Of a stretch of DNA of 39,451 nt, positions 4,915 through 32,899 are shown one piece after another. The DNA comes from Phycisphaerae bacterium (GTDB lineage Bacteria > Planctomycetota > Phycisphaerae > UBA1845 > PWPN01): contig JAGNEZ010000057.1 of NCBI GenBank assembly GCA_018003015.1, positions 1 to 39,451 of the forward strand. The letters run 5' to 3'. Below the pieces are notes generated by a model that saw nothing but the letters and a program-made list of their open reading frames with translations, was not told where the DNA came from and did no database searches. A program made the position numbers and the translations under genes. Positions within the stretch are counted from its first letter, which is position 1; every line of letters begins with the position of its first letter.

Positions 4915-5814
4915 TTAGTAGCTGAAGGCGGCCGTTGCCTGGCTGCCGTAGCCGTCCCGGGCCACATAGTACTTGAGGATCTTGTGCAGTTCGACGCGCC
5001 CGTCTCCGTAGCCGACGTTGGTGTCGATGAAGCGGTTCCAGTAGGCGTCCATCCGCGGGGCTGGTTCGGGGTTCTTGGCGTGAAAGGTGCGGTAGGGGTT
5101 CAGCGGCGTTCCGCGCTCAGCCGCCGGCCAGGCTTCGTTGACATCGGTGACAATGACGTCCTGGGGATGGCCAGCCTCGCGAGGTTCATGACCCTGGTCG
5201 GCGGCCGACGGCAGGATCTTCGATGCCCCGTAGTTGCCCGACTTGCCCCAGAGGAAGGTGATCGGGTTGTGGCTCCGATCGGGTTGCATGCCGGCCAGCA
5301 GGTTGTAGCCCATCATGTAGCTGACCGGTCGGGGATTGCCGAAGTCGCACACGAAGAACACCTTGGACCATAGGTTGCGGTCTTCCTCGTCCATGAGTCC
5401 CTGGTAGCCGAATTTGGGCTGCAGGTAGTAGTCGCTGGACAGCAGCGGGCACCACAGCACGTCGGCCTGCTTGCTGGCCGCGGTGTAGTACAGGAATCTG
5501 CGCATGTCCGGCGTGGCCGTGCGATTCATCTGGATGAAGTTCGCGTCGATCACCTTTCGGCTCGGGTACAGGCCTCGGTTCTCGGCCGCGTAGATCAACA
5601 GCCCCCTGCTGATTTGAGAGACTCGACTCGCACAAACCGCGACTTTGGCCCTCCTTCGGGCCCCACTCAGCGACGGCAGGAGAACGGAAATCAGCAATGC
5701 CAGGATGGCCACAACCACCAGGATTTCGATGAGGGTGAAGGCGTAGAACCTCCGAGCAGCTTCCGCCAGGGCGGGTCTTGGCTTCGTTGACCGGACCAGC
5801 GCGTCGGCAACCAC
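4915..5814 (-). CDS. Pseudopilin-like protein with prepilin N-terminal methylation motif
   Basis: The protein has about 299 residues from a GTG at 5814, chosen because ACGGAGGA lies seven bases before it. An upstream in-frame ATG at 5895 has no such site. A leader of about 27 residues ends in FYAFTLIEILVVVAILALLI, the type IV prepilin cleavage and membrane segment, followed by SVLLPSLSGARRRAKVAVCA. The residue before the cleavage site is Ala rather than Gly. The C-terminal part contains NVGYGDGRVELHK, a variant of the DG motif of planctomycete DUF1559-type pseudopilins. Such proteins are exported and probably processed by a prepilin peptidase. It has its own promoter (5931-5958) and is divergent from the regulator gene. 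Confidence 0.8.
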   Translation of the reverse strand: MVADALVRSTKPRPALAEAARRFYAFTLIEILVVVAILALLISVLLPSLSGARRRAKVAVCASRVSQISRGLLIYAAENRGLYPSRKVIDANFIQMNRTATPDMRRFLYYTAASKQADVLWCPLLSSDYYLQPKFGYQGLMDEEDRNLWSKVFFVCDFGNPRPVSYMMGYNLLAGMQPDRSHNPITFLWGKSGNYGASKILPSAADQGHEPREAGHPQDVIVTDVNEAWPAAERGTPLNPYRTFHAKNPEPAPRMDAYWNRFIDTNVGYGDGRVELHKILKYYVARDGYGSQATAAFSY

Positions 5815-5908
5815 GAGCGAGTCCTCCGTTCTCTGCCGATCGACGAAAACACGTCCAGGTGGTGGCCGATCCCCGGGCCTCCCGTCGGCCGGCAACGCCC
5901 GACGAGAT

Positions 5909-6270: not shown

Positions 6271-6378
6271 GACGTGTATCGCTGGGAGTCGGTGAGTAAG
6301 GACACTTTTCGATGCGGGCCGACGCATGGGTCGGGTCCTTCCCAATCCACCTGCGGTGTTCGGCGGCGGGAAAGCATC

Positions 6379-7479
6379 ATGGTGAGTGACACGCGAGAGG
6401 TCGGCGCTTTAGCCGCGAGGTTGGTTCGGCAGGTACGCCGCCAAGTGCTCAGCGGACGGCTGGTGGGGGGAACCGAGCTGCCGTCGGTCCGGAAGCTGGC
6501 CAGCCTCAGCGGGATTGGGAAGGACACGGCCAGCCAGGTCCTGCGCTGCATTGAGAAAGAAGGGTGGGCCAAGCGGAAGTCAGGCTACTCGCTTCGGATC
6601 ACCGACGATGCGGTGACCGTGGCCAGGAAGCACTCCGAGCTTGAACCCCCCACGGTCATCGTCATGTTGGCGGGCAAATCGATCCGCGGTTTCGACCCCG
6701 GCATGGTGGATTTGCTGATCGAGGGCATCTCCCAGGTCTTCCACTCGGCCTCCTTCCGCAGTATTTACTTTGACCTGAGCCGGTGGATGGGCTTCGTCCG
6801 TCAGTGCCTGGAGGAGGGCAAGCAGTTGTCCTGCGAGGTCGGCTACGTGCTACGCAGCTTGCCGTCGGAAGTCTACCAGTTCTTCGCCAGCAGTCGAGTA
6901 CCTTGCGTCGTGCTGGGCCATTGTGATCCAAGTCTCAGTCTTCCCTCGGCGGTGATGGACATGGTCGAGGTAGGCCGTCTGGTGGGGAATGCCCTGTGTC
7001 CCGGCGGGCGGCTGGTGGCCTTGTGCCAGGACAATCTGGTGGGCTCGGAAATCCAGATCATCGAAGGTGTCCGGGAAGTGGCCGCCTCGCTGGGCTGCCG
7101 GGTACCTACGCCGGCGGATTTCCACTACCACCTGCCCACCGACTTCAACGGCGCTGTCGCAGGGATCGACCGGCTGCTGGCAGGGCGGGACCGTCCTGCG
7201 GGTCTCCTGGCCCTGCGGCCGGACTTCGCCCTGGCTGCCCTGAAAGTGGCCGCTCGGCGGAGGATCCGCATCCCTGACGAACTCCAGCTCATCGGCCTGA
7301 ACCACCACCCGGTCTTCCGCTACGTGCATCCGGCGATCACTTCGGTGGGCGACTCCTGGGTGGAAGTGGGCCGGCAGTGTGCGATGTTCCTGGGTGACGC
7401 CCTCGCCCACCTCCCCACGACCGCCTCGCGATACGTGGCCGCGACGACCATGGAGCGGCAGGAGTCGACACGGGCGTGA
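6379..7479 (+). CDS. GntR-type regulator with LacI/periplasmic-binding-like effector domain
   Basis: The protein has 366 residues from the ATG at 6379; an in-frame ATG at 6274 would add 35 residues of low-quality sequence that overlap the leader. Residues about 10-75 form a GntR winged helix: VRRQVLSGRLVGGTELPSVR then KLASLSGIGKDTASQVLRCI and EKEGW. The rest resembles the two-lobed sugar-binding fold of LacI repressors: PTVIVMLAG, EGISQVFHSASFRSIYF, GREV-type segments, PAGLLALRPDFALAALKVA, then IPDELQLIGLNHHPVF and HPAITSVGDSW. This GntR-LacI chimera is the AraR architecture, which usually senses a sugar and represses catabolic genes. It faces away from the pseudopilin gene and lies upstream of the three-gene module run. 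Its ligand is unknown. Confidence 0.8.
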   Translation: MVSDTREVGALAARLVRQVRRQVLSGRLVGGTELPSVRKLASLSGIGKDTASQVLRCIEKEGWAKRKSGYSLRITDDAVTVARKHSELEPPTVIVMLAGKSIRGFDPGMVDLLIEGISQVFHSASFRSIYFDLSRWMGFVRQCLEEGKQLSCEVGYVLRSLPSEVYQFFASSRVPCVVLGHCDPSLSLPSAVMDMVEVGRLVGNALCPGGRLVALCQDNLVGSEIQIIEGVREVAASLGCRVPTPADFHYHLPTDFNGAVAGIDRLLAGRDRPAGLLALRPDFALAALKVAARRRIRIPDELQLIGLNHHPVFRYVHPAITSVGDSWVEVGRQCAMFLGDALAHLPTTASRYVAATTMERQESTRA

Positions 7480-7619: not shown

Positions 7620-9929
7620 ATGACAAGAGGCGATTCCATCAGGCATTGGAGCGCGATGGCGGTGTTTGTGATCAGCGGGGCGCTGGCCAGTCACGTTCAC
7701 GCCCTGGTACTGATCAGCCACCAAGGCCAGGCCGATCCGGTCGGCGAGGGTTGGACGGCGAGCGCCGGCGGCAGCTCGGCAACCAACGCTGGAGGCAACG
7801 ACGGGGAGGATTACTGGGGCATGCAAGTGCCTTCGGCCTCACGCCTCGGCTACACCGTGAACATCAGCAGCGACAACCTCGGCCATCCAGCGGGTTGGAC
7901 GGCGACCGTACGCGTGAAGCTGGTTTCGGGAGGCGACATAGCCAGCCAGGCGGCATTGCAGGTCATCGACGGCAAGGACCGCTTTGACATCTATCTGGCG
8001 GATGGCACCGGATCCGTCGCTCAAGGAGTGTGGATCCGGGGTGCGGCGGGCGACGCTCAGATCAGCACGCTCGATCCGTGTGCCGCCTATCACACTTACC
8101 AGATTGTCTTCGATCCGGCCGGCAACGGGGGCAGCGGCACCGCTTCTTTCTACATGGACGGCGCGCTGCTCGTGACCCAAACGCGCGACGATGCCGTGAA
8201 CAATACGCAGTATCGGCGGATCCTCTGGGGTGACAACAACTCGGGGGGCAGCAGCAGCGAGTCACGATGGGCTCTCGCCCGGTTCGAGTTGGGGCAGCGC
8301 CCGCTGGGGGTGTCCAATGACATGTGTGTCAACGCCCTGGTCGTCGCCGACGGCAGCTATGCCACGGACACGACCGTTGCCACCAATGACGGCGTTGCCT
8401 CCTGCGGCACGTCATCGACCAGTCCGGATGTGTGGTACGTGTACACCGCTTCCTGCAATGGCAAAGTGCATATCGACACGTGCAACGCGGTGTACGACAG
8501 CGTGGTGTCCGCCTATCGGGTCACCGGCTTGCTTTGCCCGGCCGAACCGGCCGACGAGGCGGGCTGCAGCGATGATTGTGGCGGGGCCCCGTGCGGCGGC
8601 CCAGGTTCTTGTCTGGTGCTGCCGGCGGTTGCCGGCGACAGGCTGCTGATTCGTGTATCCGGTGCCAACGGGGCGTCCGGGACAGCAACCTTGAACGTCG
8701 CCTGCATGGTCGATCCTCCTCCGCCCAACGATGTCTGCTCGGCGGCCGAAGTGGTCACCGAAGGGACGGTCACTGGATCGACGCTAACCGCCACCCCCGA
8801 CGGCGACGCAACCTGCGGCTCCTCGGGAGGCACTCCCGATGTCTGGTATTCGTTTACCCCAACCAAGTCGGGTACGCTTCGGATCATCAAGTCGGCGGCG
8901 TCCGCGATGTCAACCGTGGTCTCGGTCCACCGCACTTGCCCGGGTGGCCTGGAGAACCAGCAGGCCTGCGCGGCCAATGCCGTCCTGCTGACCAACGTCA
9001 CCGCGGATGTCACCTATCTGATCCGGGTGGCCGGCTTGAACGGGGCTACGGGCACCTTCGCCCTGGAGCTATCCGTCCAGGAGTTTCCGGTCGTCATCAC
9101 CCACCAAGGGTTGAACGACCCGCTGACGGAGGGCTGGTCGGTCGAGGACCTTGGAACGGGAGATGCCGCCACCCTCGGTCCCGGCGATGATGGCGAGGAT
9201 TACTGGGGCGTCCAGGTCCCCGACTCGCGGCGGGTGGGTTACACCGTCAATGTGAATTCTGCGGAGTTCGAGAATCCCAGCGGGTGGACGGTGACCATGC
9301 GGGCCAAGGCACTGTATGCAGCTGATCAGAGTCAGGCACAGCTCCAGGTGATTGACGGCAAGGACGTGTGGGCTTTGGACCTCATCGACGGCAGAGGCAG
9401 TTTCCCCCGTGGCCTCTACGCCCGAGTGACCGCCAGTCCGGGTATCGAGCTGATCGCGGATGTCGACCCAACGGCGGTGTACCACACCTATCAGATGGTC
9501 TATGATCCCGCTGGGGACAGCGGCCAGGGCAGCGTCTCCTATTACCTCGATGGCTTGTGGGTCGGCTCGCGCACCCGTGCACTGGTGCCGGATAACACCA
9601 CCTACTCGCGGGTGCTGTTTGGCGACAATACCGCCCAGACGCGGGGCTACGCCACCGAATCGCACTGGGCGATGGTTCAGCTGGAGCTCGGTCAGCGGCT
9701 GGTGGTGATGTGCCACGATCCCTTCGCAGATTCCGACGGCGACGGCGACGTGGATCAGGTCGATTTTGGCGCGATCCAGCTCTGCTACACGGGAGCAGTG
9801 AGCACGGTGACCAGCTCTTGCGTGTGCTACGATCACGACCAGAACGCCTTCGTCGACGCCCAGGACCTGGAAGCATTCTTCCGCTGCGTGGGCGGGCCGG
9901 CGGTCCTGGCCGACAAGGACTGCGACTGA
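7620..9929 (+). CDS. Secreted multidomain protein: two shared ~200-residue modules, two PPC-like domains, dockerin-like end
   Basis: The protein has 769 residues from the ATG at 7620, set by GAGGAGG upstream; an in-frame ATG at 7587 lacks a site and precedes the signal sequence. A Sec signal (WSAMAVFVISGALASHVHA) leads to module copy A (about residues 29-230). Two PPC-like beta domains follow (about 232-365 and 368-488), starting NDMCVNA and NDVCSAA and each containing DVWY. Module copy B is at about 490-695. The end carries dockerin or EF-hand-like repeats (DSDGDGDVDQVDFGAIQLCY and DHDQNAFVDAQDLEAFFRCV). The modules have a lectin-like or LamG-like feel (GWT...DYWG.QVP, LQVIDGKD, YHTYQ..DPAG, Y.DG) but I cannot assign them to a family. 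It is probably an extracellular carbohydrate-binding or surface protein. Confidence 0.75.
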   Translation: MTRGDSIRHWSAMAVFVISGALASHVHALVLISHQGQADPVGEGWTASAGGSSATNAGGNDGEDYWGMQVPSASRLGYTVNISSDNLGHPAGWTATVRVKLVSGGDIASQAALQVIDGKDRFDIYLADGTGSVAQGVWIRGAAGDAQISTLDPCAAYHTYQIVFDPAGNGGSGTASFYMDGALLVTQTRDDAVNNTQYRRILWGDNNSGGSSSESRWALARFELGQRPLGVSNDMCVNALVVADGSYATDTTVATNDGVASCGTSSTSPDVWYVYTASCNGKVHIDTCNAVYDSVVSAYRVTGLLCPAEPADEAGCSDDCGGAPCGGPGSCLVLPAVAGDRLLIRVSGANGASGTATLNVACMVDPPPPNDVCSAAEVVTEGTVTGSTLTATPDGDATCGSSGGTPDVWYSFTPTKSGTLRIIKSAASAMSTVVSVHRTCPGGLENQQACAANAVLLTNVTADVTYLIRVAGLNGATGTFALELSVQEFPVVITHQGLNDPLTEGWSVEDLGTGDAATLGPGDDGEDYWGVQVPDSRRVGYTVNVNSAEFENPSGWTVTMRAKALYAADQSQAQLQVIDGKDVWALDLIDGRGSFPRGLYARVTASPGIELIADVDPTAVYHTYQMVYDPAGDSGQGSVSYYLDGLWVGSRTRALVPDNTTYSRVLFGDNTAQTRGYATESHWAMVQLELGQRLVVMCHDPFADSDGDGDVDQVDFGAIQLCYTGAVSTVTSSCVCYDHDQNAFVDAQDLEAFFRCVGGPAVLADKDCD

Positions 9930-10064
9930 CGACCAGAGGCTGGAGGAGTTCGAGAACGTCACGCGATTTCGCTTCGATGTTGACCTGCAGGGTCGGTCGG
10001 TGAACCGGCGTCCGGTGCACCGCCATCCCCCGGTCCCGAAGCCCAGACCAAGCGAGGAGGAGAA

Positions 10065-10856
10065 ATGCGAAATCTGTGGAATCAGGCGGTGTACTTCGGC
10101 GTTGCCATGATCGTTCTGGGCCTGCTGGCATCCGGCGCAGGCGCCACGGTGCTCGTCACTCATACCGGCAGCGCCGATCCCACGACCGAAGGCTGGACGG
10201 CTTCCACGGGCGGCGGTGTCTCGACCAGCGGGCCGGGCAACGAGGACGGCAAAGCCTATTGGTTTGTCCAGTCCCCCGAGGCTAGTCGGCTCGGCTATAC
10301 GGTCGACCTCACCAGCGGTAACGTCACCGACCCCAGCGGGTGGACGGCAACCGCGGTCGTCAGGCTTGTCTTGGGTGGAGAGCCGAGCAGCCAGGCGGCC
10401 CTGCAGGTCATCGACAAGAAAGACCGGTTCGATATCTACCTCTCCGATGGCAGCGGCACGGTCGCCCTGGGTGTATGGATCCGGTCGGTAGCCGGCGATG
10501 TTCAGGTCAGCAGTGCCGACCCGCGCGTCGGCTACCACACCTATCAGATTACCTTCGATCCCGCCGGCAATGCAGGTGACGGGGCCGCTTCCTACTACAT
10601 GGATGGGGCCTTGCTCGCGACGCAGACTCGCGCCGATGCCGTGAACAACACCAGCTACCGCCGGATCCTCTGGGGCGACAACAACAGCGGGGCGGGCACT
10701 CCCAGCAGCGAATCGCACTGGGCCTTCGCCCAGTTCGAGACCGGCCAGCGCGTCGTCCCGGAGCCCGCCACAATCCTGCTGCTGGGTGTGGGCGGCCTGT
10801 TGTTCCACCGTCGCCGGCGACGAAGGTCGCCGCTGCTGCAGAGGCAGACGAAGTGA
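10065..10856 (+). CDS. PEP-CTERM protein with one copy of the shared module
   Basis: The protein has 263 residues. GAGGAGG precedes the ATG. A signal peptide (FGVAMIVLGLLASGAGA) is followed by module copy C (about residues 27-225), which is very close to copy A of the previous gene: SRLGYTVDLTSGNVTDPSGW, AALQVIDKKDRFDIYLSDGS and YRRILWGDNNSG. The C-terminus VPEPATILLLGVGG then LLFHRRRRRR is a PEP-CTERM sorting tail (PEP motif, hydrophobic segment, Arg cluster). In bacteria with an exosortase such proteins are cleaved and sent to the outer surface. It lies 135 bases after the preceding gene and overlaps the next by four bases. Confidence 0.8.
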   Translation: MRNLWNQAVYFGVAMIVLGLLASGAGATVLVTHTGSADPTTEGWTASTGGGVSTSGPGNEDGKAYWFVQSPEASRLGYTVDLTSGNVTDPSGWTATAVVRLVLGGEPSSQAALQVIDKKDRFDIYLSDGSGTVALGVWIRSVAGDVQVSSADPRVGYHTYQITFDPAGNAGDGAASYYMDGALLATQTRADAVNNTSYRRILWGDNNSGAGTPSSESHWAFAQFETGQRVVPEPATILLLGVGGLLFHRRRRRRSPLLQRQTK

Positions 10857-12742
10857 GCGAACCACGAGTGGCCGACAGGCTGGTTGCCGTTTGTCTCGCG
10901 GCCGCGTGCATCCTCGGCGCAGACGCATTGCCCGAGGCCCGCGCCGTCTGGTTGATCGATGTGCGCAAAGTCTGGGACCAGGCACCCCACAATGCGTTTA
11001 CCGACCTGATCCGCTTCCAGGGCCGGTGGTTTCTCTGCTTTCGGGAAGGTCCGATTCATGGTGTACCCCCGCTGGGTACGCCGGGTGGAAAGCTGCGCAT
11101 TCTGCGTTCCGACGACGGCGAAAGCTGGAGATCGGCCGCACTCCTGGACTGCGGTTCAGACCAGGATTTGCGGGATCCCAAGTTGAGCATCACGCCCGAT
11201 GGCCGGCTGATGCTCATTGCAGCCGCAGCCCCCGAGGCTTCGCCAGACGACCGGCAGTCGCTGGGCTGGTTTTCAGTCGACGGCACGGCGTGGACGGGTC
11301 CCATTGAAACCGTCGAACACAACCTATGGTTGTGGCGCGTCACCTGGCACAACGACATCGCCTACGGCTTCGCCTACGGCCGGCAGAGCAACGCGTTCCT
11401 CCGTCTCTACAGGAGCGCGGACGGAGCACTCTACGAGACGGTAATCGAGAGCCTGCTGGCCGGTCAGGATTACCCCGGCGAGACCACGATTCGATTCCTG
11501 GCCGATGATACGGCCTACGCCCTGATCCGGCGGGCAACGGGCACGAAGACCGGCCTGCTGGGCACGGCCCAGCCACCGTATGCCAACTGGACCTTCAAGA
11601 ACCTCGGCGTGCAGCTTGGCGGCCCCAACCTGATTCAACTGCCGGATGGGCGTCTTGTGGCCGGTACACGACTGTACGACGGGACCACGCGCACCTCACT
11701 CTGCTGGCTCGATCCGCAGGCCGGCACGCTCACGGAATTCCTGACCCTCCCCTCGAGCGGCGACACGAGCTATCCGGGCTTCGCATGGCATGAGGGCATT
11801 CTCTGGGTCAGCTACTACGCTTCGCACGAGGGGAGGGCTTCAATCTACCTGGGCCGAGTGGATTTCAATCGGGATCCACCTCCCTTCGTTGTTCGGCATC
11901 TTGGCTGCACCGATCCGCAAACGGAAGGGTTCTCCGTTTCCGTCGTCGGCGAACCCGCGACGCTGGGCGGCGGAAACGATGCCGAGGATCACTGGTCGAT
12001 CGCCGCGCCCACGTCAAGCCGGCACGGTTACACGGTCAATCTCGATCCCCAGGTCCTCGCCCACCCTGCCGGCTGGACAGCCACGGCACGGCTCAGAGTT
12101 GTGGCCGCCGCGGCCCCAAGCCAGGTCCAGCTCCAGGTGATCGACGGCCGAGATGTCTGGGCGCTGAGTTTCATCGACGGCCGAGGGGACTGGGCCCGCG
12201 GCGTGTACAGCCGGACCACAGCTGCCAACGGCAACGACTTGTTGAGCGAGATCGACCCCACGGCGGATTACCACACCGCTCAGATCGTCTTCGATCCTGC
12301 GGGCGATGGCGGAAAGGGCATGGCTTCGTTCTACCTGGACGGGCAGATTCTCGGTTCCCTCACCCGGGCCGAGGCGCCCGACAACACGAGCTATCGCCGC
12401 ATCCTCTGGGGCGACAACACCAGCGCCGGGCCACCTACCGAATCACGATGGTCATACACCCGGTTTGAGACCGGCCGGCAAGCCCCCAAGCTGTGCGGTG
12501 CCCACTTCGCGGATGCGGATGGCGATGGTGATGTAGACCAGTCCGACTTCGGCATGCTCCAGCGGTGTTACACCGGGCCTGACGGCTCCGAAAAAGCCGG
12601 CACGATCGCGTGCCGCTGTTTCGACCGCGACTTCCACGGCCTCGGCGACGGTGATATCGATACGGATGACCTGTCCGCGTTCATGGTGTGTTACCGGGGG
12701 CCGGAGTTGCCCTTATCCCCCGATGGTGACCATCGTCCGTGA
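10853..12742 (+). CDS. Secreted sialidase-like propeller with shared module and dockerin-like end
   Basis: The protein has 629 residues from a GTG at 10853 that overlaps the preceding stop in GTGA, implying coupled translation. An N-terminal signal (LVAVCLAAACILGADA) is followed by a propeller of about 310 residues with sialidase or exo-hydrolase style blades: FTDLIRFQGRWFLCFREG, LRILRSDDGESWRSAAL and LRDPKLSITPDGRLMLI. Module copy D covers about residues 348-541. The end (about 550-620) has DADGDGDVDQSDFGMLQRCY and GDGDIDTDDLSAFMVCYRGP, dockerin-like calcium loops. The FREG motif and the RDPKL stretch recall GH33-like proteins, but the Arg triad and Tyr/Glu pair cannot be assigned by eye. 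Confidence 0.75.
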   Translation: MSEPRVADRLVAVCLAAACILGADALPEARAVWLIDVRKVWDQAPHNAFTDLIRFQGRWFLCFREGPIHGVPPLGTPGGKLRILRSDDGESWRSAALLDCGSDQDLRDPKLSITPDGRLMLIAAAAPEASPDDRQSLGWFSVDGTAWTGPIETVEHNLWLWRVTWHNDIAYGFAYGRQSNAFLRLYRSADGALYETVIESLLAGQDYPGETTIRFLADDTAYALIRRATGTKTGLLGTAQPPYANWTFKNLGVQLGGPNLIQLPDGRLVAGTRLYDGTTRTSLCWLDPQAGTLTEFLTLPSSGDTSYPGFAWHEGILWVSYYASHEGRASIYLGRVDFNRDPPPFVVRHLGCTDPQTEGFSVSVVGEPATLGGGNDAEDHWSIAAPTSSRHGYTVNLDPQVLAHPAGWTATARLRVVAAAAPSQVQLQVIDGRDVWALSFIDGRGDWARGVYSRTTAANGNDLLSEIDPTADYHTAQIVFDPAGDGGKGMASFYLDGQILGSLTRAEAPDNTSYRRILWGDNTSAGPPTESRWSYTRFETGRQAPKLCGAHFADADGDGDVDQSDFGMLQRCYTGPDGSEKAGTIACRCFDRDFHGLGDGDIDTDDLSAFMVCYRGPELPLSPDGDHRP

Positions 12743-12751
12743 TCGGCCAGT

Positions 12752-12787
12752 CCTGAAGCCGAAGGCGACGGATGCCGGGGCTTCAGG
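12752..12787. terminator. Inverted repeat between convergent genes
   Basis: CCTGAAGCC at 12752-12760 and GGCTTCAGG at 12779-12787 pair perfectly (nine bases) around an 18-base loop. It lies just after the rightward gene ending at 12742 and overlaps the last codons of the leftward gene ending at 12783. It could stop transcription from both sides. No T-run is seen. Confidence 0.35.
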
Positions 12788-14630
12788 GGCGGGCCAGGAC
12801 TCCTTCGGCCGACCACTGGCCCAGCGGAGCGGCGGTATCCAGGGCATCCAGCGGACGCTCGCGAACGGAGAACAGCACGGCGACGCGAGCACGGGGAACA
12901 GCGGTCTTGACGCGGACCATGAGCTTGCGGGTGTTCTTGACCGGTTCCTGAGGCTTCTCCAGTCGGACCTCCTGCAGCTGCCAGGCTGCGTTCTTCGGCT
13001 CGAGCACGTCGGCGTACAGCTTCTTGTTCCCGAGGGTCAAGATGGCTCGGCGCCCGCGGCTGACGACGGCGGCATGGGTGTGCATGGCCCAGTCGGCCTC
13101 AACTGGAGTGGCGGCCTCGATTTCATCTTCGACGAGTATGCGGTCATCGCCGATCAGGGCAACACCGCGACGGACCTGCTGAGCGTGTTTGGCGTAGGCA
13201 GCCGTCAGATCGGCCACCGCAAACGAACCGCCGCCCGCGATCCTCGACTCGAAGGCGACCAGCGGGGCCTTGGCCGCGGGATTCTGGTTGTCACCGTTCA
13301 GCACGAGCGTGTTCTGGCCTTCGCTGCGCAGGCGGTAGTAAGTCCATCGCTGCTTGCCGAAGTAACCGGGCATGTTGTAGTTGTCGCCCCCCAGTTCGAT
13401 CGCCCATCGCTGCCCGAGGGCGTCCAGCACAAACGTTCCGAGGTCCAGGTGGCTGTGATTGGCCTTGTTGTCGCCGCCTTTGAACGCAATGAACAGGGCC
13501 TGCGGGTCGTTCCACTTGCTCCGCAGATAGGCCGAGTGAATGCCGCGGAACTGGGCCGCGGTCGGCAGTCGTTCCATATCCGCCGCACTGCCGCGCGGGT
13601 CGTACCACAGCAGGTCGAAGATCTCTGATCCGCCGAATTGTCGTTCGTTCACCGCGTACGCCGGCCGGTCAAACCGGCGGGCGAAGTACATCATTTGGGC
13701 CGCGGTGCCCGGCTTTGAACCCCCGTCGGCATAGTTGAATGTCAGGCCCGTCGGGCCAATGGCGTGGATGCGATACAGGCCCGTTTCCGCGAAGCCGGGC
13801 ATGGCCTGCAGACCGAAGTCATCGCCCAGGGCCGTGTTCAAGGCGGCCCAGTAGAACGCGGTATAACGCATCGCGTAATTCCAGTAGCCAGGCCCCTCCG
13901 CCCACCCGCCGTCGGGTGCCAGGCTTGCCATCGCCCGTGGAATCGACCGGCGAGCGTGCGAAATCACCTCGGCGGCCAGGGAGGGCTCCTCGTCGGCGAT
14001 GGCCAGTGCCCCGACGGTCATGCCCCCGTTGCACACCTGGTTCCAGTTGTGCCGCGCGACCGCCCACCAGCGACTCCTGCGATACACGTCCAGCCCGGGT
14101 TTGAGCCCTTTCTCGGCAATGGCCGTTCGGATGGCTTTACGACTCTCCTCCGAAAGCTGGTCGTACAGCCAGTCATAGCCGATGCCCAGGGCATTGCTCA
14201 TCTCCGCGGTGTCCAGGAAGTGCGAGGGGTTCCAGTCGGCAAAGGTGGCCGCGGTCAGCATCTCCTTCTCCGCGCGTTCGGCGAACCGTCGGTCGCCCTC
14301 CAGCCGGTACATTCCCGCCAGTGTGGCCACACGCCGCAGGCAGGTGCGACTCTGGCTGAGCAGGCGCGGCCCCTCCAGCCTGTGCTCGACGGTCGGCTCG
14401 TTGAGTATCTTGACCGCCTGGTCGCGGAGCCGATCGCAAAGCTTGCGGACATCCGTGTTCGTCTTGACCAACTCGCGCACGCGGGCGATATCATCTTCCA
14501 GCACCAATAGCCGCGGGTGGGCCGGACGTAGCGTACGCAGAACCTGCGCGTCCGCTGGAGTGGTTGCCGGCTGGGCAGAGGCCAACGCCGCGAAGATCAT
14601 CGACACGATGAACGCTATTACGGTATGCAT
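12783..14630 (-). CDS. Secreted heparinase II/III-like polysaccharide lyase
   Basis: The protein has 615 residues from the ATG at 14630, chosen because a clean signal peptide follows (MHTVIAFIVSMIFAALASAQ). In-frame ATGs at 14696 and 14744 give a poor N-terminus. The first half is an alpha/alpha toroid with HNWNQVCNGG (about 194-203) and WAEGPGYWNYAMRYTAFYWA (about 243-262). The second half has NHSHLDLGTFVLDALGQRWA then IELGGDNY, the conserved beta-sandwich motif of heparinase II/III family lyases, with His392 and His394 and a later YYRLRSEGQNTLVLNG. Such lyases cut uronic-acid glycans by beta-elimination (heparin, alginate or similar). Substrate cannot be told. A TACAAT lies about 115 bases upstream without a clear -35. 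Confidence 0.8.
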   Translation of the reverse strand: MHTVIAFIVSMIFAALASAQPATTPADAQVLRTLRPAHPRLLVLEDDIARVRELVKTNTDVRKLCDRLRDQAVKILNEPTVEHRLEGPRLLSQSRTCLRRVATLAGMYRLEGDRRFAERAEKEMLTAATFADWNPSHFLDTAEMSNALGIGYDWLYDQLSEESRKAIRTAIAEKGLKPGLDVYRRSRWWAVARHNWNQVCNGGMTVGALAIADEEPSLAAEVISHARRSIPRAMASLAPDGGWAEGPGYWNYAMRYTAFYWAALNTALGDDFGLQAMPGFAETGLYRIHAIGPTGLTFNYADGGSKPGTAAQMMYFARRFDRPAYAVNERQFGGSEIFDLLWYDPRGSAADMERLPTAAQFRGIHSAYLRSKWNDPQALFIAFKGGDNKANHSHLDLGTFVLDALGQRWAIELGGDNYNMPGYFGKQRWTYYRLRSEGQNTLVLNGDNQNPAAKAPLVAFESRIAGGGSFAVADLTAAYAKHAQQVRRGVALIGDDRILVEDEIEAATPVEADWAMHTHAAVVSRGRRAILTLGNKKLYADVLEPKNAAWQLQEVRLEKPQEPVKNTRKLMVRVKTAVPRARVAVLFSVRERPLDALDTAAPLGQWSAEGVLARP

Positions 14631-15170
14631 GTCATTGCCCCACAACGATTCGTGGAAAAGGACTTCTGCGAGAGCTCGAGAAGACTCGATCCCCATTTCC
14701 GAGACTGCCTCACCTGGTTTCGCCGCCAGGTGGCAGTCGGCCATTGTACAACGCTTCAGGACTCAGAGGGTACTGAACTCGCCGCAGTACGCCTATGCCT
14801 GGGCACAGCGTTGATGCACTGCCGCCTTGTCGTCGGATCGGGAAGCCCCCCCTGGGCGGGCCTCTGTCCCAGTATCTTGCCTTGAGTCGCCAGAATCAGG
14901 AGGGATACCCGTGGGCTACGAAGGACATCCGCTCGGGAAGGAGAGCCGATTCTGTCCTCCGCTTGACGGCGGCCTGTTCACCTTCCGGCTGCGGGCGCAA
15001 GAGCAAGGGCCCGGATCTGATCCGGGCCCTGCTGCATCTGTACACGAAAGTAACCCGAAACCGGTTGATCTTCCGGTTCAATCAGGGGCTAAGCCAAGAC
15101 GCTGTGACCCACACATCCCGCTTGGCCCCTGCCGGCGAGCTGCCGGTACCATCCCTGCTGAGCCGGAGCC
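14631..15170. other. Gene-free stretch between two leftward genes
   Basis: I see no supported gene. The right part holds a strong GC hairpin at 15006-15030. The left part is the leader of the lyase gene and includes a TACAAT-like -10 at 14748-14743 with no good -35. Plus-strand open frames here lack family features. Confidence 0.4.
15006..15030 (-). terminator. Strong hairpin after the PEP-CTERM gene
   Basis: AGGGCCCGGATC (15006-15017) and GATCCGGGCCCT (15019-15030) are exact reverse complements around one base; the tip would open to a small loop. Read leftward it is followed by TTGCTCTTG, a weak T-rich tail. It lies about 140 bases after the stop of the leftward gene at 15171. Confidence 0.45.
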
Positions 15171-16692: not shown

Positions 16693-19218
16693 TCACCTCG
16701 CTCCGTTGGTCCAAGTCACGCGGGCGACGAAGACGCTGCCGTCGGCACCGCGCGGATCTGGTTGGCCTGCCAGCGTGTACTCGGCGTCCGTGATCCACGA
16801 TTCGCGGTCTGTGATGGGCGTCGCTCCGAAGTTGCCCAGCATGGCCCCCCGTTCCGGAATCAGGACACGCTCCGTGGCTCGCAGAACGCGCAATCTGGCC
16901 GGGTCCACCTGGGCGATGAACAGGGGAGCCCGGTGGCGGGGGATGTGATCATTGCCTGCTCCTCGGCGGGTGTAGCACAGGAACAGGCCCTGGTTCGTCG
17001 ACAGCCAGTGCTGCTGCGTGTTGTAGCTGCCGAGCTCGTTGCCGTCGTCGAACAGCCACGGACTCACCGGGGCGTAGTTCAGCCCGTCCTGACTGACCGT
17101 CACGTACCCTCGTTTGTCGCTCCGGATGGTCAGATACCAGTGGCCGCGGTGATGAACGATGGAGGGTTCACTGAAGCCTCGGTCGATGTTCAGAAGGAGT
17201 TCATCACCGCGTTCGAGGCACCTGAGCTCCCGGCCATCGAACGCGCAGCGAATCACGCTGACCGATGTCGGCGCACTTGCAGACTTCCCGTGATAGAAGG
17301 GGACGAGCAGCGTGCCACCCGGTTCGACCGCCCACTGAGAGCAAGCGCTTCGGAAGAAGTTGAATTCCCCTCCGGCGGGCGGTTGCACGGCCTGCCAGTT
17401 GGACCATGTGTCGCGCTCCGGATCGTAGACGGCGTACGCGGTCTGGTGCGAGCGCGGCCGGTCGTCGAGCTGCCTGCCTTCGGGGTCGTAGCGGACTTGG
17501 GCTCCGATGGCGATCACCCGCTTCGTCGGCTGGTGCCAGCCCGGGGTCACGTCGGCGACGGCGATGGTCGCACCCCCCCGCTCCTTTCGCCAGGCGAGTT
17601 CGGGCACTTCCGTCGGCCCGGTCCACGTCCGGCCCAGGTCGTCGGTGCGCATCATGTACAGGCCCGAGTAGTGATCCGATGCCCGTAGATGCTTCTGAAG
17701 GGTCATGATCACGGCGGGCTTGCGGTCACGTCCCGCGGCGGGCACGGCCGCGACCCGGGGATGGAACCAGCAGAAGTCCGGTGAAAGCTCCTTCTTCGCC
17801 ACGTCGAGCCGCACGTCTTTGATCAGTTGGGTCGGGAGCCTGGCGTCGAGGGCCTTGGTCATGGCCTCGATCATGAGGTTGTCCATCATCGGCGGCACCC
17901 AGCAGTAATTGTCGTCGTAGCCGTCTCGCCAGCACTGGTCCGTGGGCATGTACCCGGGAGCCCCATCGCCAAAGCCGGCCACGACCACAAACGAATCCGG
18001 ACGCAGCCGCTGGGCGGTGAGCTGGTAGGCTACGAAGCTCTCCGCCGGCATGATCATGAACTGACTGGCGTCGTCGCCCAGCGCCAGGCAGGGGACGTCG
18101 ATGGGATGTCGGGCGTCCACGCGCTGCCGCCAGCTCAATCCGAGCGCGGCAGAGATCCTCGGCCAGCGACCGGCTCGAGCGTCGGCGAGCGTCGTCCTCA
18201 TGGCATCCAAAGCAAACCCGCCGGTGTCGCGGGCAGGCAGGGCTAGCTTCGCAACGCGGAACTGGACGCGGCCCAGGGGGTGTTTCTCGGTTGCGTTCCA
18301 GGCCGCAAGCATGGCTTGGTACAACCGGTCGGCGAGGATCGGCCGGTTTTCCGCCGCACCGGTGTTGTACTTGCCGGCCGTGGTGTCACCCGCGCACCCG
18401 GTGAAGTAGATCTGGAGGCAGCCGGAACTGTCTTTCTGTCGCCGAGCTCGGGCCATGCCCGGGAAATCCGCCGAGACGAATCCGCGCCCGTAGTGGCTCA
18501 TCGGATGGACCGCGTAGCAATTCCATGCGACCACCGGCCGATCACCGTCCCATAGGCTGATCGTCTTGAGCCAGGGATCGATTTCGCCCTCGGGGGCGCC
18601 GTACATGTCGCCGCTGGAACTGCCCCGCCCCCAGTGGATCTTGCCCTCCGGGGTCATCACCCGGCGGTTGGATGCGATCCGCTCCACTTTGGCCTGGCCG
18701 ATTCCGAAGTGAGTCACGGGACGCGGAGACGCCAGGGCCTCACGCAAGGCCCGGGCCGTCCTCCGCACGGCGGTCTCATGGAATTCGAGATCGCAGTTCC
18801 AGCCTTTCAATCCCTGTTCGTTCAGCAGTTTCTGCGCCGTCAGATCGCAGATGGGCGCATCATGCTGATGGACGGTGGCCAGCATGACCCGTTCCCGGCT
18901 TGTACCGGCCGCCTCGGCCAGGGCTTCCCGCCATCGGTCGTACGAGTCGTTGTTGCACTGGCACCAGTCCAACGCGATGACCACCACGGGTTCCCCGGGC
19001 CCCAGCAGCACACATCCCTTGGCGTAGAGCGGGTCGACGATCTCCTTGGCGTCAGCCACACCGCCGCCCATACACGCATGGCCTATGGGGATGGTCACGT
19101 CGGCGGAGAAAACCGCCACGCGGTAGGGGGGCTCAGAGCCAGAAGGAGCGTCCGCCGCCCCCAGGGGCGCGGTCGCGGAGAAGAAAGAAGCGATCACAGT
19201 GGCAAGCAACCGGGTCAC
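16693..19218 (-). CDS. Secreted ceramidase-like / sialidase-like fusion protein
   Basis: The protein has 841 residues. Its signal peptide (LLATVIASFFSATAPLGAAD) is followed by a neutral-ceramidase-like N-domain (about 30-470). This carries FSADVTIPIG, VMLATVHQHDAP (His117, His119), NCYAVHPMSHYGRGFVSADF and FTGCAGDTTAGKYN, which hold the histidines of the zinc site and the usual HxHxAP motif. The C-terminal part (about 480-841) is a propeller with sialidase-like blades: MMRTDDLGRTWTGPTEVPEL, FSEPSIVHHRGHWYLTIRSD and TVSQDGLNYAPVSPWLFDDG. Neutral ceramidases cleave N-acyl bonds of sphingolipids; the bacterial relatives in this phylum may act on other amides. A joining of the two domain types in one chain is unusual. 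It lies 104 bases after the related gene at 19323. Confidence 0.75.
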   Translation of the reverse strand: MTRLLATVIASFFSATAPLGAADAPSGSEPPYRVAVFSADVTIPIGHACMGGGVADAKEIVDPLYAKGCVLLGPGEPVVVIALDWCQCNNDSYDRWREALAEAAGTSRERVMLATVHQHDAPICDLTAQKLLNEQGLKGWNCDLEFHETAVRRTARALREALASPRPVTHFGIGQAKVERIASNRRVMTPEGKIHWGRGSSSGDMYGAPEGEIDPWLKTISLWDGDRPVVAWNCYAVHPMSHYGRGFVSADFPGMARARRQKDSSGCLQIYFTGCAGDTTAGKYNTGAAENRPILADRLYQAMLAAWNATEKHPLGRVQFRVAKLALPARDTGGFALDAMRTTLADARAGRWPRISAALGLSWRQRVDARHPIDVPCLALGDDASQFMIMPAESFVAYQLTAQRLRPDSFVVVAGFGDGAPGYMPTDQCWRDGYDDNYCWVPPMMDNLMIEAMTKALDARLPTQLIKDVRLDVAKKELSPDFCWFHPRVAAVPAAGRDRKPAVIMTLQKHLRASDHYSGLYMMRTDDLGRTWTGPTEVPELAWRKERGGATIAVADVTPGWHQPTKRVIAIGAQVRYDPEGRQLDDRPRSHQTAYAVYDPERDTWSNWQAVQPPAGGEFNFFRSACSQWAVEPGGTLLVPFYHGKSASAPTSVSVIRCAFDGRELRCLERGDELLLNIDRGFSEPSIVHHRGHWYLTIRSDKRGYVTVSQDGLNYAPVSPWLFDDGNELGSYNTQQHWLSTNQGLFLCYTRRGAGNDHIPRHRAPLFIAQVDPARLRVLRATERVLIPERGAMLGNFGATPITDRESWITDAEYTLAGQPDPRGADGSVFVARVTWTNGAR

Positions 19219-25298: not shown

Positions 25299-26705
25299 AT
25301 GAGAACAGCTACGACTTGTCGCTTGGCGTTTACGGCGGCGTTCATTCCGCTGTGCCCGTGGTGGGCACCAGGTGAGACCCGGGGGGAGGCAGCATCGCCG
25401 GCCACCCCACGCAAGCTGGTTGCCCAGACCTACAACTCCGGCTTCGAGCTGGCCCACGATACCTACAACGGAATGGGCACCGGCAGCGACGGCAGGATCT
25501 ACTACGTGCTCTGCAGCGAGTCGATCGACATCGGGGCCCAGATGTACGTGTTTGACCCGGCGACTCGCCGCATCGCGCACTGCGGCGACCTGACCGAGGC
25601 CTGCGGTGAGAAGGGCTCGAAATCGATCGTCCAGGGCAAGAGCCATGTCAATTTCGTCGAGTGCGGGGGCAAGCTCTACTTCTCCACGCACACCGGTTAC
25701 TACACCATCATCGACGACATGGAGAAGATGGGCACTCCGCCGCCGGGTTACAAGCCCTATCCTGGAGGCCATCTTCTGGCCTATGACCTGGCCTCGGCCA
25801 AGTTTGAGGACCTCGGGGTCGCGCCTCAGGGCGAGGGCGTCCTGACGATGAACATGGATACCCGGCGCGGGCGGATCTACGCCCTGACCTGGCCCACGGG
25901 CTGCTTCTTCCGCTATGACCTCGCGAAAAGAGAGATGAAGGACCTGGGTTCGTTCAACGAGAAGGGTGAGAACGGCAAGGGACCCACCTATCGCACCATC
26001 TGCCGCTCGATCGCGATCGACCCGACCGATGGATCAGCGTACTTCACTACGGGGAGCGGTGATATCCTCCGCTACCGCTTCGACCGCGATGCCGTTGAAC
26101 GGGTCGCCGGCGACAATATGAAAAAGGACTACTTCGGTCTCTATGACCCCACCTCGCCGGGCCACATGGGCTACAACTGGCGACAGACGGCCTGGCACCC
26201 GGCCGAGGAAGTCGTCTATGGCGTACACGGCAACTCGGGCTACCTGTTTCGCTTCGACCCGCGAGCGGTCCGAGTGGACGTTCTCGACCGCATCACCTCC
26301 GAGCCGTCGAAACGGAGCGGTATGTACGACCAGTTCAGCTACGGCTACCTCGGTTTCGCCCTGGGGCCGGATCAGCGAACGCTCTACTATCTGACTGGCG
26401 GTCCGGTATACGTCGACGGAAAGCGGATCGCGGGCAAGGACAGCACGGGCAAGGGCGAGTCCAAGGGGATCGAGAACCTGCACCTGATCACCTACGACGT
26501 CCCTACCGCGACATACCGCGACCACGGAGCGATCTTTTTCGCGAACGGCGACCGGCCGGCATACGTCAACTCGATCGCCCTCGGCAAGGACGGTACGGTG
26601 TATTCCCTGTCGCGAATCACCGAGAACGGCCGCACCCGGACGGATCTTTTCAGCGTGGCCCCGGTGGTGAAACCCGTCGCCGGGTCTCCACTGCAGGACC
26701 GTTAG
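25299..26705 (+). CDS. Secreted propeller protein of unknown function
   Basis: The protein has 468 residues with an N-terminal signal (LAFTAAFIPLCPWWAPG). I do not recognise a named family. Blade-like repeats run throughout: GMGTGSDGRIYYVLCSESID, MNMDTRRGRIYALTWPTGCF, IAIDPTDGSAYFTTGSGDIL, WHPAEEVVYGVHGNSGYLFR and FALGPDQRTLYYLTGGPVYV. The pattern suggests a seven- or eight-bladed propeller. It could be a lyase of the oligogalacturonide or ulvan kind or a binding protein, but no catalytic residues stand out. It follows the isomerase-like gene by 21 bases and precedes the arabinofuranosidase by about 240 bases, so a shared role in glycan use is likely. Confidence 0.65.
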   Translation: MRTATTCRLAFTAAFIPLCPWWAPGETRGEAASPATPRKLVAQTYNSGFELAHDTYNGMGTGSDGRIYYVLCSESIDIGAQMYVFDPATRRIAHCGDLTEACGEKGSKSIVQGKSHVNFVECGGKLYFSTHTGYYTIIDDMEKMGTPPPGYKPYPGGHLLAYDLASAKFEDLGVAPQGEGVLTMNMDTRRGRIYALTWPTGCFFRYDLAKREMKDLGSFNEKGENGKGPTYRTICRSIAIDPTDGSAYFTTGSGDILRYRFDRDAVERVAGDNMKKDYFGLYDPTSPGHMGYNWRQTAWHPAEEVVYGVHGNSGYLFRFDPRAVRVDVLDRITSEPSKRSGMYDQFSYGYLGFALGPDQRTLYYLTGGPVYVDGKRIAGKDSTGKGESKGIENLHLITYDVPTATYRDHGAIFFANGDRPAYVNSIALGKDGTVYSLSRITENGRTRTDLFSVAPVVKPVAGSPLQDR

Positions 26706-26946
26706 TCGGTCGCTCGGTGCGCGCCCGTGCGCCGCGGGGCCCCCTTGTTCGCCGCAGAGCGGATACCGGACTTGTGCGGTGCCTGTGCGGCAAGCAGGCG
26801 CAGGAGGAGGGGGGCATGGATACAATAGCGGAGCACCGCCCGGCGGCGTAGTCGGCGGAGTTCGCTGGCAAGTCTCGGACAGAGGGTAAGGAATGATGCG
26901 TTCCGCAAAGGGGCACAACGGTCCGTGGAGGAGGAGGGAGACCCGG

Positions 26947-28533
26947 ATGAGACTCACCGTCCGGTCCCGGTCAGGCCTGAGAGCCGTCGCTCTGACCACC
27001 GGCCTCGCGCTTTCAGGAGCTTCGGCTCTGCCGGTCTTCTCACAGGATGTGCAGTCGGCGGCCGTCGTGGTACGCGGCGACCAGCCCGGGGCCGTGATTA
27101 ACCGCAACATCTACGGCCATTTCGCCGAGCATCTCGGCCGCTGCATCTACGAGGGCATCTGGGTCGGGGAGGATTCCTCGATCCCCAACACCCGCGGCAT
27201 CCGCAACGATGTGCTGGCCGCGCTCAAGGAACTGAACGTCCCGGTGCTCCGCTGGCCCGGCGGCTGCTTCGCCGATGAGTATCACTGGAAGGACGGCATC
27301 GGCCCACGCGAAAAACGCCCCAAGATCATCAACACCCATTGGGGAGGCGTGGTCGAGAATAACCACTTCGGCACCCACGAGTTCCTCGACCTCTGCGAGC
27401 TGCTCGGTGCCGAGCCCTACATCTGCGGCAACGTCGGGAGTGGCAGCGTCCAGGAGATGATGGAGTGGGTCGAGTACATGACCTCTGATGCCGACTCTCC
27501 CCTGGCGAACCTCCGGCGACAGAACGGCCGGGAGAAGCCCTGGCGGGTGCGGTTCTTCGGTGTCGGCAACGAAAGCTGGGGCTGCGGCGGCAACATGCGG
27601 CCGGAGTACTACGCCGACCAGTTCCGCCGCTACAACACTTTCGTCAAGAACTACTCCGGCAACCGCGTCTACCGCATCGCCTGCGGCTCCAATGGCGACG
27701 ACCTGAACTGGACTGAAGTCCTGATGCGACAAGCCGGCCGCCAGATGAACGGCCTCTCGCTTCATTACTACACCCTCGCCACCGGCAAATGGGACAGGAA
27801 GGGCTCCGCCACCGACTTCGATGAGAGCCAGTGGCATTCCACCCTTCGCCACACGCTGAGAATGGACGAGCTCATCACCAAGCACGCCGAGATCATGGAT
27901 CGCCACGACCCGGGCAAACGCGTCGGCCTGGTGGTGGACGAGTGGGGCACCTGGTACGACGTGGAGCCCGGCACGAACCCCGGCTTTCTCTACCAGCAGA
28001 ACACCTTGCGCGATGCCCTCGTCGCCGCCCTGAACTTCCACATCTTCCATCGCCACGCCGACCGCGTGGTCATGGCCAACATCGCCCAGACGATCAATGT
28101 ACTCCAGGCCATGGTACTCACTGACAAGGAGAGAATGCTCTGCACGCCCACCTACCACGTTTTCGAGATGTTCAAGGTGCACCAGGGCGCTGCCTCCCTA
28201 CCCGTGGAAGTGCAGGCACCTCCCTATGCGCTCGACAGCCAGCAGATCCCCGCCGTCAGTGCATCCGCGTCCCGGCAGGCCTCCGGTGCCGTCAGCCTCT
28301 CCCTGGTCAACACCCATCCTCAGCGGGCCGCAAGGATCGCCTGCAAGCTGACCGGACTGACGCCCAAGTCGGTGAGCGGCCGCGTGCTGACCGCACCGGA
28401 AATCAACGCCCACAATACATTCGCCGCCCCCGAAAGGGTCCAGCCTCGACCGTTTGAAGGCGCTCGTCTGTCGGACGACGGCCTCCAGGCCGAGCTGCCC
28501 CCCAGGTCGGTGGTGATGCTGGAATTGGGCTGA
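26947..28533 (+). CDS. Secreted GH51 alpha-L-arabinofuranosidase
   Basis: The protein has 528 residues from the ATG at 26947, with GGAGGAGGGAG upstream; an in-frame ATG at 26893 adds 18 residues. It has a signal-like N-terminus ([20 protein letters not shown]). The catalytic barrel has [53 protein letters not shown] (Glu209, acid/base) and [12 protein letters not shown] (Glu332, nucleophile). These are the hallmark residues of family GH51. The C-terminal beta-sandwich follows ([18 protein letters not shown] and VQPRPFEG). It removes arabinose from arabinans, arabinoxylan or glycoproteins. Intracellular GH51 enzymes are more common; the exported form fits the other secreted enzymes here. Confidence 0.9.
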
Positions 28534-32805: not shown

Positions 32806-32899
32806 CCGGACGAACCGGAACGACGGCCTGGCCCTGCCCGGGGGGCACGTGGCCTGCCCCGGGTGATCGGGAACCTCCACCACGGCAAGGGGTGATTCG

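What the first reader, a model, noticed from the sequence alone, without database searches (positions are those of the whole stretch)
7707..12475. A roughly 200-residue module present four times across three adjacent genes
Copies lie at about 7707-8310, 9088-9705, 10146-10750 and 11895-12475. All share GWT, DYW or EDHW, RxGYTVN, PxGW, LQVIDGxD, DGxG, YHTYQ or YHTAQ, DPAG, Y.DG, TR, T.Y.R.L.GDN and ESxW...E.GQ. I cannot place the module in a named family, though it has a lectin or LamG-like feel. It is combined with PPC-like domains, a sialidase-like propeller, dockerin-like ends and a PEP-CTERM tail. A binding role for one surface polymer is a reasonable guess.
Basis: partly seen in the sequence, partly recalled or inferred. 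Interest (0 to 1): 0.65.

Follow-up and report, generated by a model that had tools for sequence, protein, structure and literature searches.

The report
Vibrio-sialidase-type lectin module repeated four times
Three neighbouring genes of a Planctomycetota bacterium share a sugar-binding domain that is a distant cousin of the lectin domains of cholera-bacterium sialidase; it is a known fold, but with a changed binding site and in a group of bacteria where a 2017 survey had not found it.

Summary
Four ~200-residue copies (7701-8303, 9087-9698, 10146-10751, 11885-12481) are 44-68% identical, in three adjacent genes. The genome holds 13 copies in three clusters.

The module can be placed. A profile of the 13 copies finds only the lectin domains of Vibrio cholerae sialidase convincingly in the PDB (E 6e-11); a 24-member profile reaches 1e-26 and matches both of its lectin domains. 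The predicted structure (pLDDT 95) fits that domain best (Z 22, 2.2 A over ~179 residues). It is a Vibrio-type CBM40 relative; Laminin_G_3 stays below its cut-off.

The binding site differs. Of six sialic-acid contacts, one (Arg74) is kept in all four copies and the Arg pair only in copies 1 and 3. Each cluster has its own site signature, so the ligand is probably not ordinary sialic acid.

Copy 4 sits behind an unclassified propeller with the sialidase fold, mirroring the V. cholerae enzyme, but that propeller lacks the first catalytic arginine.

Best reading: a cluster-specific glycan-binding tag shared by a secreted multi-lectin protein, a PEP-CTERM surface protein and a sialidase-like enzyme. 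Binding itself is untested. New variant of a known kind.

The parts
7620..9929 (+). gene 1: signal peptide - module copy 1 - two GBD_T9SS_assoc stretches - module copy 2 - acidic dockerin-like end; secreted multi-lectin protein
   Evidence: ORF (listed from GTG 7587; ATG 7620 has an AGGAGG box); Pfam; orthologue in sister MAG
7701..8303 (+). module copy 1 (c1), Vibrio-CBM40-type lectin domain; keeps both Arg equivalents (R48, R94)
   Evidence: (2w68 E 5.1e-9)
9087..9698 (+). module copy 2 (c2)
10065..10856 (+). gene 2: signal peptide - module copy 3 - PEP-CTERM sorting tail; absent from the sister genome's cluster
10146..10751 (+). module copy 3 (c3); nearest to copy 1 (68%), also keeps both Arg equivalents
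10853..12742 (+). gene 3: signal peptide - sialidase-fold propeller - module copy 4 - acidic dockerin-like end; overlaps gene 2 by 4 bases (GTGA)
10943..11866 (+). propeller of gene 3, unclassified in Pfam and NCBIfam; fold of GH33/GH93 (clan GH-E type)
11885..12481 (+). module copy 4 (c4)
   Evidence: (2w68 E 0.002)
6274..7479 (+). GntR-type helix-turn-helix fused to a LacI-type sugar-sensing domain; probable regulator of the cluster
   Evidence: Pfam; paralogue at the same place in cluster C63 (L010:4742-5881)
4915..5895 (-). prepilin-like protein; full-length relatives only in this genus, one per module cluster

Best explanation
The module is a carbohydrate-binding beta-sandwich of the kind found in Vibrio cholerae sialidase (Vibrio-type CBM40 and its second, inserted lectin domain). 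Shown: homology, fold, four copies in the window and 13 in the genome. Inferred: each copy binds a glycan on the concave face, in the loop that carries the conserved (W/F)GDNxS-like motif where the Vibrio domain has WGNGSS. All copies of one gene cluster share a binding-site type. They therefore act as a common address tag that brings a secreted multi-lectin protein, a surface-sorted PEP-CTERM protein and a sialidase-fold enzyme to the same polymer, raising avidity. The ligand of this cluster is probably an acidic sugar other than ordinary sialic acid, because an Arg pair for a carboxylate is kept in copies 1 and 3 while the contacts to the N-acetyl and glycerol parts are changed.
For: Profile of 13 copies against the PDB: V. 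cholerae sialidase E 6e-11, next hit E 1.4. Profile of 24 members: E 1e-26, matching both lectin domains, 64 and 38 bits. Copy 1 alone E 5e-9. 500 residue-shuffled versions of the Vibrio domain score at most 5.8 bits against 44.1 for the real one. AlphaFold2 pLDDT 94.8, pTM 0.91. Foldseek best 2w68 E 3.5e-12. VIA Z 22, 2.2 A over 178-180 residues, next fold Z 17. Copies group by cluster and nearly all have a 1:1 orthologue in the sister genome. At six contact-equivalent columns, identity is 0.52 within clusters and 0.24 between, against 0.46 and 0.35 over the whole domain. dN/dS is 0.04, 0.16 and 0.32 for copies 1, 2 and 4. The module also sits directly before a BNR propeller in a Kiritimatiellales MAG.
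Against: No binding data exist. Residue equivalences rest on sequence alignment: hhalign puts R48 on R74, but HMMER shifts R74 and R118 by one residue. Cluster-specific signatures could be shared ancestry rather than shared ligand. Single-sequence searches with copies 2 and 3 do not find the Vibrio domain. The lyase and sulfatase neighbours do not point to one polymer.
Confidence: 0.72

Rival explanations
1. The module is a true sialic-acid (or other nonulosonic-acid) binding CBM40 and gene 3 is a sialidase; the cluster harvests sialylated polymers.
For: Closest relatives by sequence and fold are sialic-acid lectins. Gene 3 has the same two-part build as V. cholerae sialidase, propeller plus lectin. 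Arg equivalents R48/R94 are kept in copies 1 and 3. A DHDPS-family protein (the superfamily of sialate lyase) lies beside cluster C63.
Against: Gln188, Gly196 and Ser197 equivalents are changed in all four copies, and Arg118 is V in copies 2 and 4. The propeller has HNAFTDL where GH33 has the RIP arginine, and an invariant His39 near the place of the acid Asp. The local genes are lyase, sulfatase and arabinofuranosidase types. The DHDPS-type gene is not in this window's cluster.
Confidence: 0.2
2. The module is a structural beta-sandwich spacer or protein-protein domain of a surface layer and binds no sugar.
For: Beta-sandwich domains often serve as spacers; copies are placed beside GBD-like and sorting domains. 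Contact residues of the parent lectin are mostly changed.
Against: The loop at the known sugar site is among the most conserved stretches (G177 invariant, D178 nearly). Parent family, repeat number, propeller neighbour and CAZyme-rich surroundings all fit carbohydrate binding.
Confidence: 0.12
3. The module is itself an enzyme of the concanavalin-like fold (GH16 glucanase or PL7-type lyase).
For: GH16 and PL7 enzymes appear with Z 14-16; weak Pfam GH16 matches in two paralogues.
Against: The Vibrio lectin domain is clearly nearer (Z 22). No ExDxxE GH16 motif is seen in the four copies. Up to three copies occur per protein, and the propeller protein already has a separate enzyme-like domain.
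Confidence: 0.03

Closest known systems
Vibrio-type CBM40, N-terminal lectin domain of V. cholerae sialidase NanH (PDB 2w68, 1w0o, 1kit)
   Same: Homologous over the whole domain; same fold at Z 22; binding loop WGNGSS sits where the module has (W/F)GDNxS; also found next to a sialidase-fold propeller
   Different: 20-24% identical; Gln188, Gly196, Ser197 equivalents changed, Arg118 kept only in copies 1 and 3; several copies per protein with sorting tails; Planctomycetota rather than Gammaproteobacteria
Pfam PF09264 Sial-lect-inser (second lectin domain of the same enzyme)
   Same: Matched by 7 of 24 family members, best E 1.9e-13; the 24-member profile also finds this domain in 1kit
   Different: The window's own proteins give no match at E 1 or better; single matches in the genome score 22.3 bits, under the 25.8 cut-off
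Pfam PF13385 Laminin_G_3
   Same: Concanavalin-like superfamily; weak matches to all three window proteins (E 0.012 to 0.12)
   Different: 12.9-16.2 bits against a cut-off of 27.6; structure fits the Vibrio lectin far better
GH33 sialidases and GH93 arabinanases (for the propeller of gene 3); PDB 5hx0 Dfer_1899
   Same: Six-bladed propeller, Z 33 to 5hx0, 30 to P. gingivalis sialidase, 29 to V. cholerae sialidase and GH93; Asp boxes; Glu180...Arg196 spacing of 16 and Tyr277 as in GH33
   Different: No RIP arginine; invariant His39; 11-17% identity; no Pfam or NCBIfam match above cut-off

Membership tests
Vibrio-type CBM40 | Sequence homology to VcCBM40 | tested here: met
   13-copy profile E 6e-11, 24-member profile E 4e-18 to 2w68 and 1e-26 to 1kit, copy 1 alone E 5e-9; shuffles at most 5.8 bits against 44.1
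Vibrio-type CBM40 | Fold of the domain | tested here: met
   pLDDT 94.8 model of copy 1; Z 22.0, 2.2 A, 179 aligned with 2w68
Vibrio-type CBM40 | Sialic-acid contacts Arg74, Arg118, Gln188, Gly196, Ser197, Ser198 (PMC12355970, after Moustafa 2004) | tested here: not met
   Window copies: R,R,R,R / R,V,R,V / Y,Y,Y,Y / N,N,N,N / N,T,N,T / S,A,S,S; equivalences by alignment, not by superposition
Vibrio-type CBM40 | Joined to a GH33 sialidase (all 8 Vibrio-type sequences in PMC5736709) | tested here: inconclusive
   Gene 3 joins a sialidase-fold propeller to copy 4, but the propeller lacks the RIP arginine; genes 1 and 2 have no propeller
Vibrio-type CBM40 | Binds sialic acid | not testable with these tools
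   Needs glycan array or calorimetry
canonical CBM40 (NanJ/NanA type) | Glu126, Arg128, Arg204 site of RgCBM40 | not tested
   Only the fold was compared: Foldseek 4c1w TM 0.41
Pfam PF13385 Laminin_G_3 | Gathering score 27.6 bits | tested here: not met
   12.9, 16.2 and 14.0 bits
Pfam PF09264 Sial-lect-inser | Gathering score 25.8 bits | tested here: not met
   No match in the window proteins at E 1 or better; the 1818-aa paralogue reaches 37.9 bits only as a sum over two copies, 22.3 bits singly
GH33 sialidase (propeller of gene 3) | Six-bladed sialidase propeller with Asp boxes | tested here: met
   Z 28-30 to many GH33 structures; three S.DG..(W/Y) boxes
GH33 sialidase (propeller of gene 3) | Arg triad beginning with the RIP motif, and Asp acid/base | tested here: not met
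   HNAFTDL in place of RIP, invariant H39; Glu180-Arg196 spacing 16, Arg250 (K or T in three relatives) and Tyr277 remain
PEP-CTERM protein (gene 2) | C-terminal PEP-CTERM signal | tested here: met
   25.6 bits, cut-off 20.7; TIGR02595 25.8 bits, cut-off 16
Dockerin type I (ends of genes 1 and 3) | Gathering score 22.9 bits | tested here: not met
   11.2 bits in gene 3, none in gene 1

The most novel reading that the evidence does not exclude
The genus carries three paralogous clusters in which a scaffold with several lectins, a surface-sorted lectin, an enzyme of an undescribed sialidase-clan family and a genus-specific prepilin-like protein work together. Each cluster uses its own re-specified version of a Vibrio-CBM40-derived lectin as a private tag for one non-sialic glycan. 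This would make a new CBM family and a new GH or PL family.
Probability: 0.3. Interest if true: 0.6.

Novelty: new variant of a known kind. Interest (0 to 1): 0.4.

Why it matters
A 2017 survey found the Vibrio-type CBM40 in only eight sequences, all in Gammaproteobacteria and all with a sialidase (PMC5736709). Relatives now appear in Planctomycetota and Kiritimatiellota, mostly without a sialidase and with a changed site. This suggests that the lectin of the V. cholerae enzyme is one member of an older, wider sugar-binding family. The natural variants (Arg-Arg, Arg-Val, Ala-Trp at the two Arg positions) make a ready panel for asking how specificity for acidic sugars evolves. Gene 3 points to a sialidase-fold enzyme group without a named family.

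Tried and rejected
LamG as the home family: below cut-off and a poorer structural fit. Enzyme identity (GH16/PL7): lower Z, and no ExDxxE motif seen. A viral origin: a scan of viral contigs gave no relative. Recent tandem duplication: rejected, since each copy except copy 3 has a 1:1 orthologue in the sister genome. Pfam PF09264 searched over 41 relatives and 14 control genomes: two weak matches, none over cut-off, so the Pfam model is too narrow to trace the family. Literature search for CBM40 together with Planctomycetes and sialidase: no paper; for 5hx0/Dfer_1899: nothing relevant. Laying out the whole genome and using a locus handle as centre for a Kiritimatiellota search were not possible. 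The hhalign alignment places R48 on R74 but misaligns the R118 region; MAFFT was used there.

Full report
Observation. Translating the three genes and aligning the four stretches confirms the repeat. The copies lie at 7701-8303, 9087-9698, 10146-10751 and 11885-12481, are 199-204 aa long and 44-68% identical, with blastp E-values from 1e-97 to 3e-56. A six-frame search of the window with their profile finds these four and nothing else. At DNA level only patches align (about 75% over the longest), so these are diverged protein domains. Gene 1 probably starts at ATG 7620 behind AGGAGG, gene 2 at 10065 behind AGGAGG, and gene 3 overlaps gene 2 by GTGA, as in an operon.

Genome context. The same genome (6.86 Mb) holds 13 copies in three clusters: four here (C57), five on C4 and four on C63. 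Each cluster has the same kit: a long secreted protein with two or three modules, GBD_T9SS_assoc domains and an acidic end; a short module protein with a PEP-CTERM-like tail; a propeller protein that carries one module; and a prepilin-like protein. Two of the three (C57 and C63) also show a GntR/LacI-type regulator next to the kit. The full-length prepilin-like protein occurs only in this genus, one per cluster. A sister genome (MAG RA.bin145, Planctomycetota) has the same clusters, but its C57 counterpart lacks gene 2.

What the module is. No Pfam model matches the window proteins' modules above cut-off; Laminin_G_3 reaches 12.9-16.2 of the required 27.6 bits. A profile of the 13 copies searched against all PDB sequences finds the V. 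cholerae sialidase entries at E 6e-11 and nothing else below E 1. Adding 11 more distant relatives lifts this to E 1e-26, with both lectin domains of that enzyme matched (64 and 38 bits). Copy 1 alone finds the isolated Vibrio lectin domain at E 5e-9 and copy 4 at 0.002; copies 2 and 3 do not. Five hundred shuffles of the Vibrio domain score at most 5.8 bits against 44.1 for the real sequence. The AlphaFold2 model of copy 1 has pLDDT 94.8. Its best PDB match is 2w68, the sialic-acid-binding domain (Foldseek E 3.5e-12; VIA Z 22, 2.2 A, 179 residues), well above the next fold at Z 17.

The binding site. A review of the Vibrio structure names Arg74, Arg118, Gln188, Gly196, Ser197 and Ser198 as sialic-acid contacts (PMC12355970). 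The numbering agrees with the sequence printed by the search at all six residues. In the window's four copies the equivalent residues are R,R,R,R; R,V,R,V; Y,Y,Y,Y; N,N,N,N; N,T,N,T; S,A,S,S. The loop WGNGSS is replaced by (W/F)GDN(N/T)(S/A). Copies 1 and 3 thus keep a possible Arg pair for a carboxylate, copies 2 and 4 only one Arg. Cluster C63 has A or V and W at the two Arg positions, and M or L at the Gln position. Over the six columns, identity is 0.52 within clusters and 0.24 between; over the whole domain it is 0.46 and 0.35. The numbers are small and shared ancestry contributes. The R74 equivalence is supported by hhalign, whereas the R118 equivalence rests on MAFFT and the shared (N/D)G hairpin; HMMER shifts both by one residue.

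Gene 3. The propeller (10943-11866) belongs to a conserved group in the family and order with invariant W11, D12, F33-R34-E35, H39, E180, R196, Y277 and others, and no Pfam or NCBIfam assignment above cut-off. Its model (pLDDT 84.6) has the sialidase fold: Z 33 to 5hx0 of unknown function, about 30 to GH33 sialidases, 29 to GH93 and to V. cholerae sialidase itself. From general knowledge of GH33: the Glu...Arg spacing of 16 (E180-R196) and the Tyr (Y277) match, while the RIP arginine is missing (HNAFTDL) and an invariant His39 lies near the place of the acid Asp. Gene 3 therefore has the two-part build of V. cholerae sialidase, with both parts altered at the sialic-acid site. A Kiritimatiellales contig shows the module directly before another BNR propeller.

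Evolution and spread. In the tree the copies of C57 and of C63 form groups and those of C4 a grade, and each copy except copy 3 pairs with its orthologue in the sister genome; dN/dS is 0.04, 0.16 and 0.32 for copies 1, 2 and 4. So the copies are old and kept by selection. The phylum-wide search with the 24-member profile found matches in 28 of 392 Planctomycetota genomes, about a dozen of them strong and several of those already in the profile. Several of these relatives are single-module PEP-CTERM-like proteins. The 2017 survey saw the Vibrio type only in Gammaproteobacteria (PMC5736709).

Mechanism. Shown: homology, fold, gene layout, conservation. Inferred: glycan binding at the concave-face loop, one ligand type per cluster, and an avidity or targeting role that links a scaffold, a surface protein and an enzyme. 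An acidic sugar is the most likely ligand class here, but the heparinase II/III-type lyase (12783-14744), sulfatases and arabinofuranosidase nearby do not single out one polymer. Verdict: a real and placeable domain; a new variant of the Vibrio-type CBM40 kind, of moderate interest.

Noticed in passing
10943-11866: Sialidase-fold propeller group without Pfam or NCBIfam assignment, with invariant H39, E180, R196, Y277; relatives in 10 of 61 related genomes, one of them fused behind another propeller (L009:15398-17950).
   Followed up: partly
4915-5895 (-): Prepilin-like protein whose full-length relatives occur only in this genus, exactly one beside each of the three module clusters.
   Followed up: partly
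6274-7479: GntR helix-turn-helix fused to a LacI-type sugar-binding domain, upstream of the module genes; a paralogue sits at the same place in cluster C63.
   Followed up: partly
10065-10856: Gene 2 (copy 3, PEP-CTERM) is missing from the otherwise about 92% identical cluster of the sister genome (L022), so the surface-sorted copy can be lost or gained alone.
   Followed up: partly
12783-14744 (-): Heparinase II/III-like lyase (DUF4962 plus Hepar_II_III_C), convergent with gene 3.
   Followed up: no
16693-19218 (-) and 25299-26705 (+): Large ORFs (841 and 468 aa) without a Pfam match.
   Followed up: no
L010:2106-3065 (-): DHDPS-family protein (superfamily of sialate lyase) beside cluster C63, with BNR_2 propellers on either side; relevant to a possible nonulosonic-acid substrate.
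   Followed up: no
30991-34429: Two sulfatases with SGSH_C ends behind an alpha-L-arabinofuranosidase (26893-28533) and a HerA-like ATPase ORF (28586-31018).
   Followed up: no
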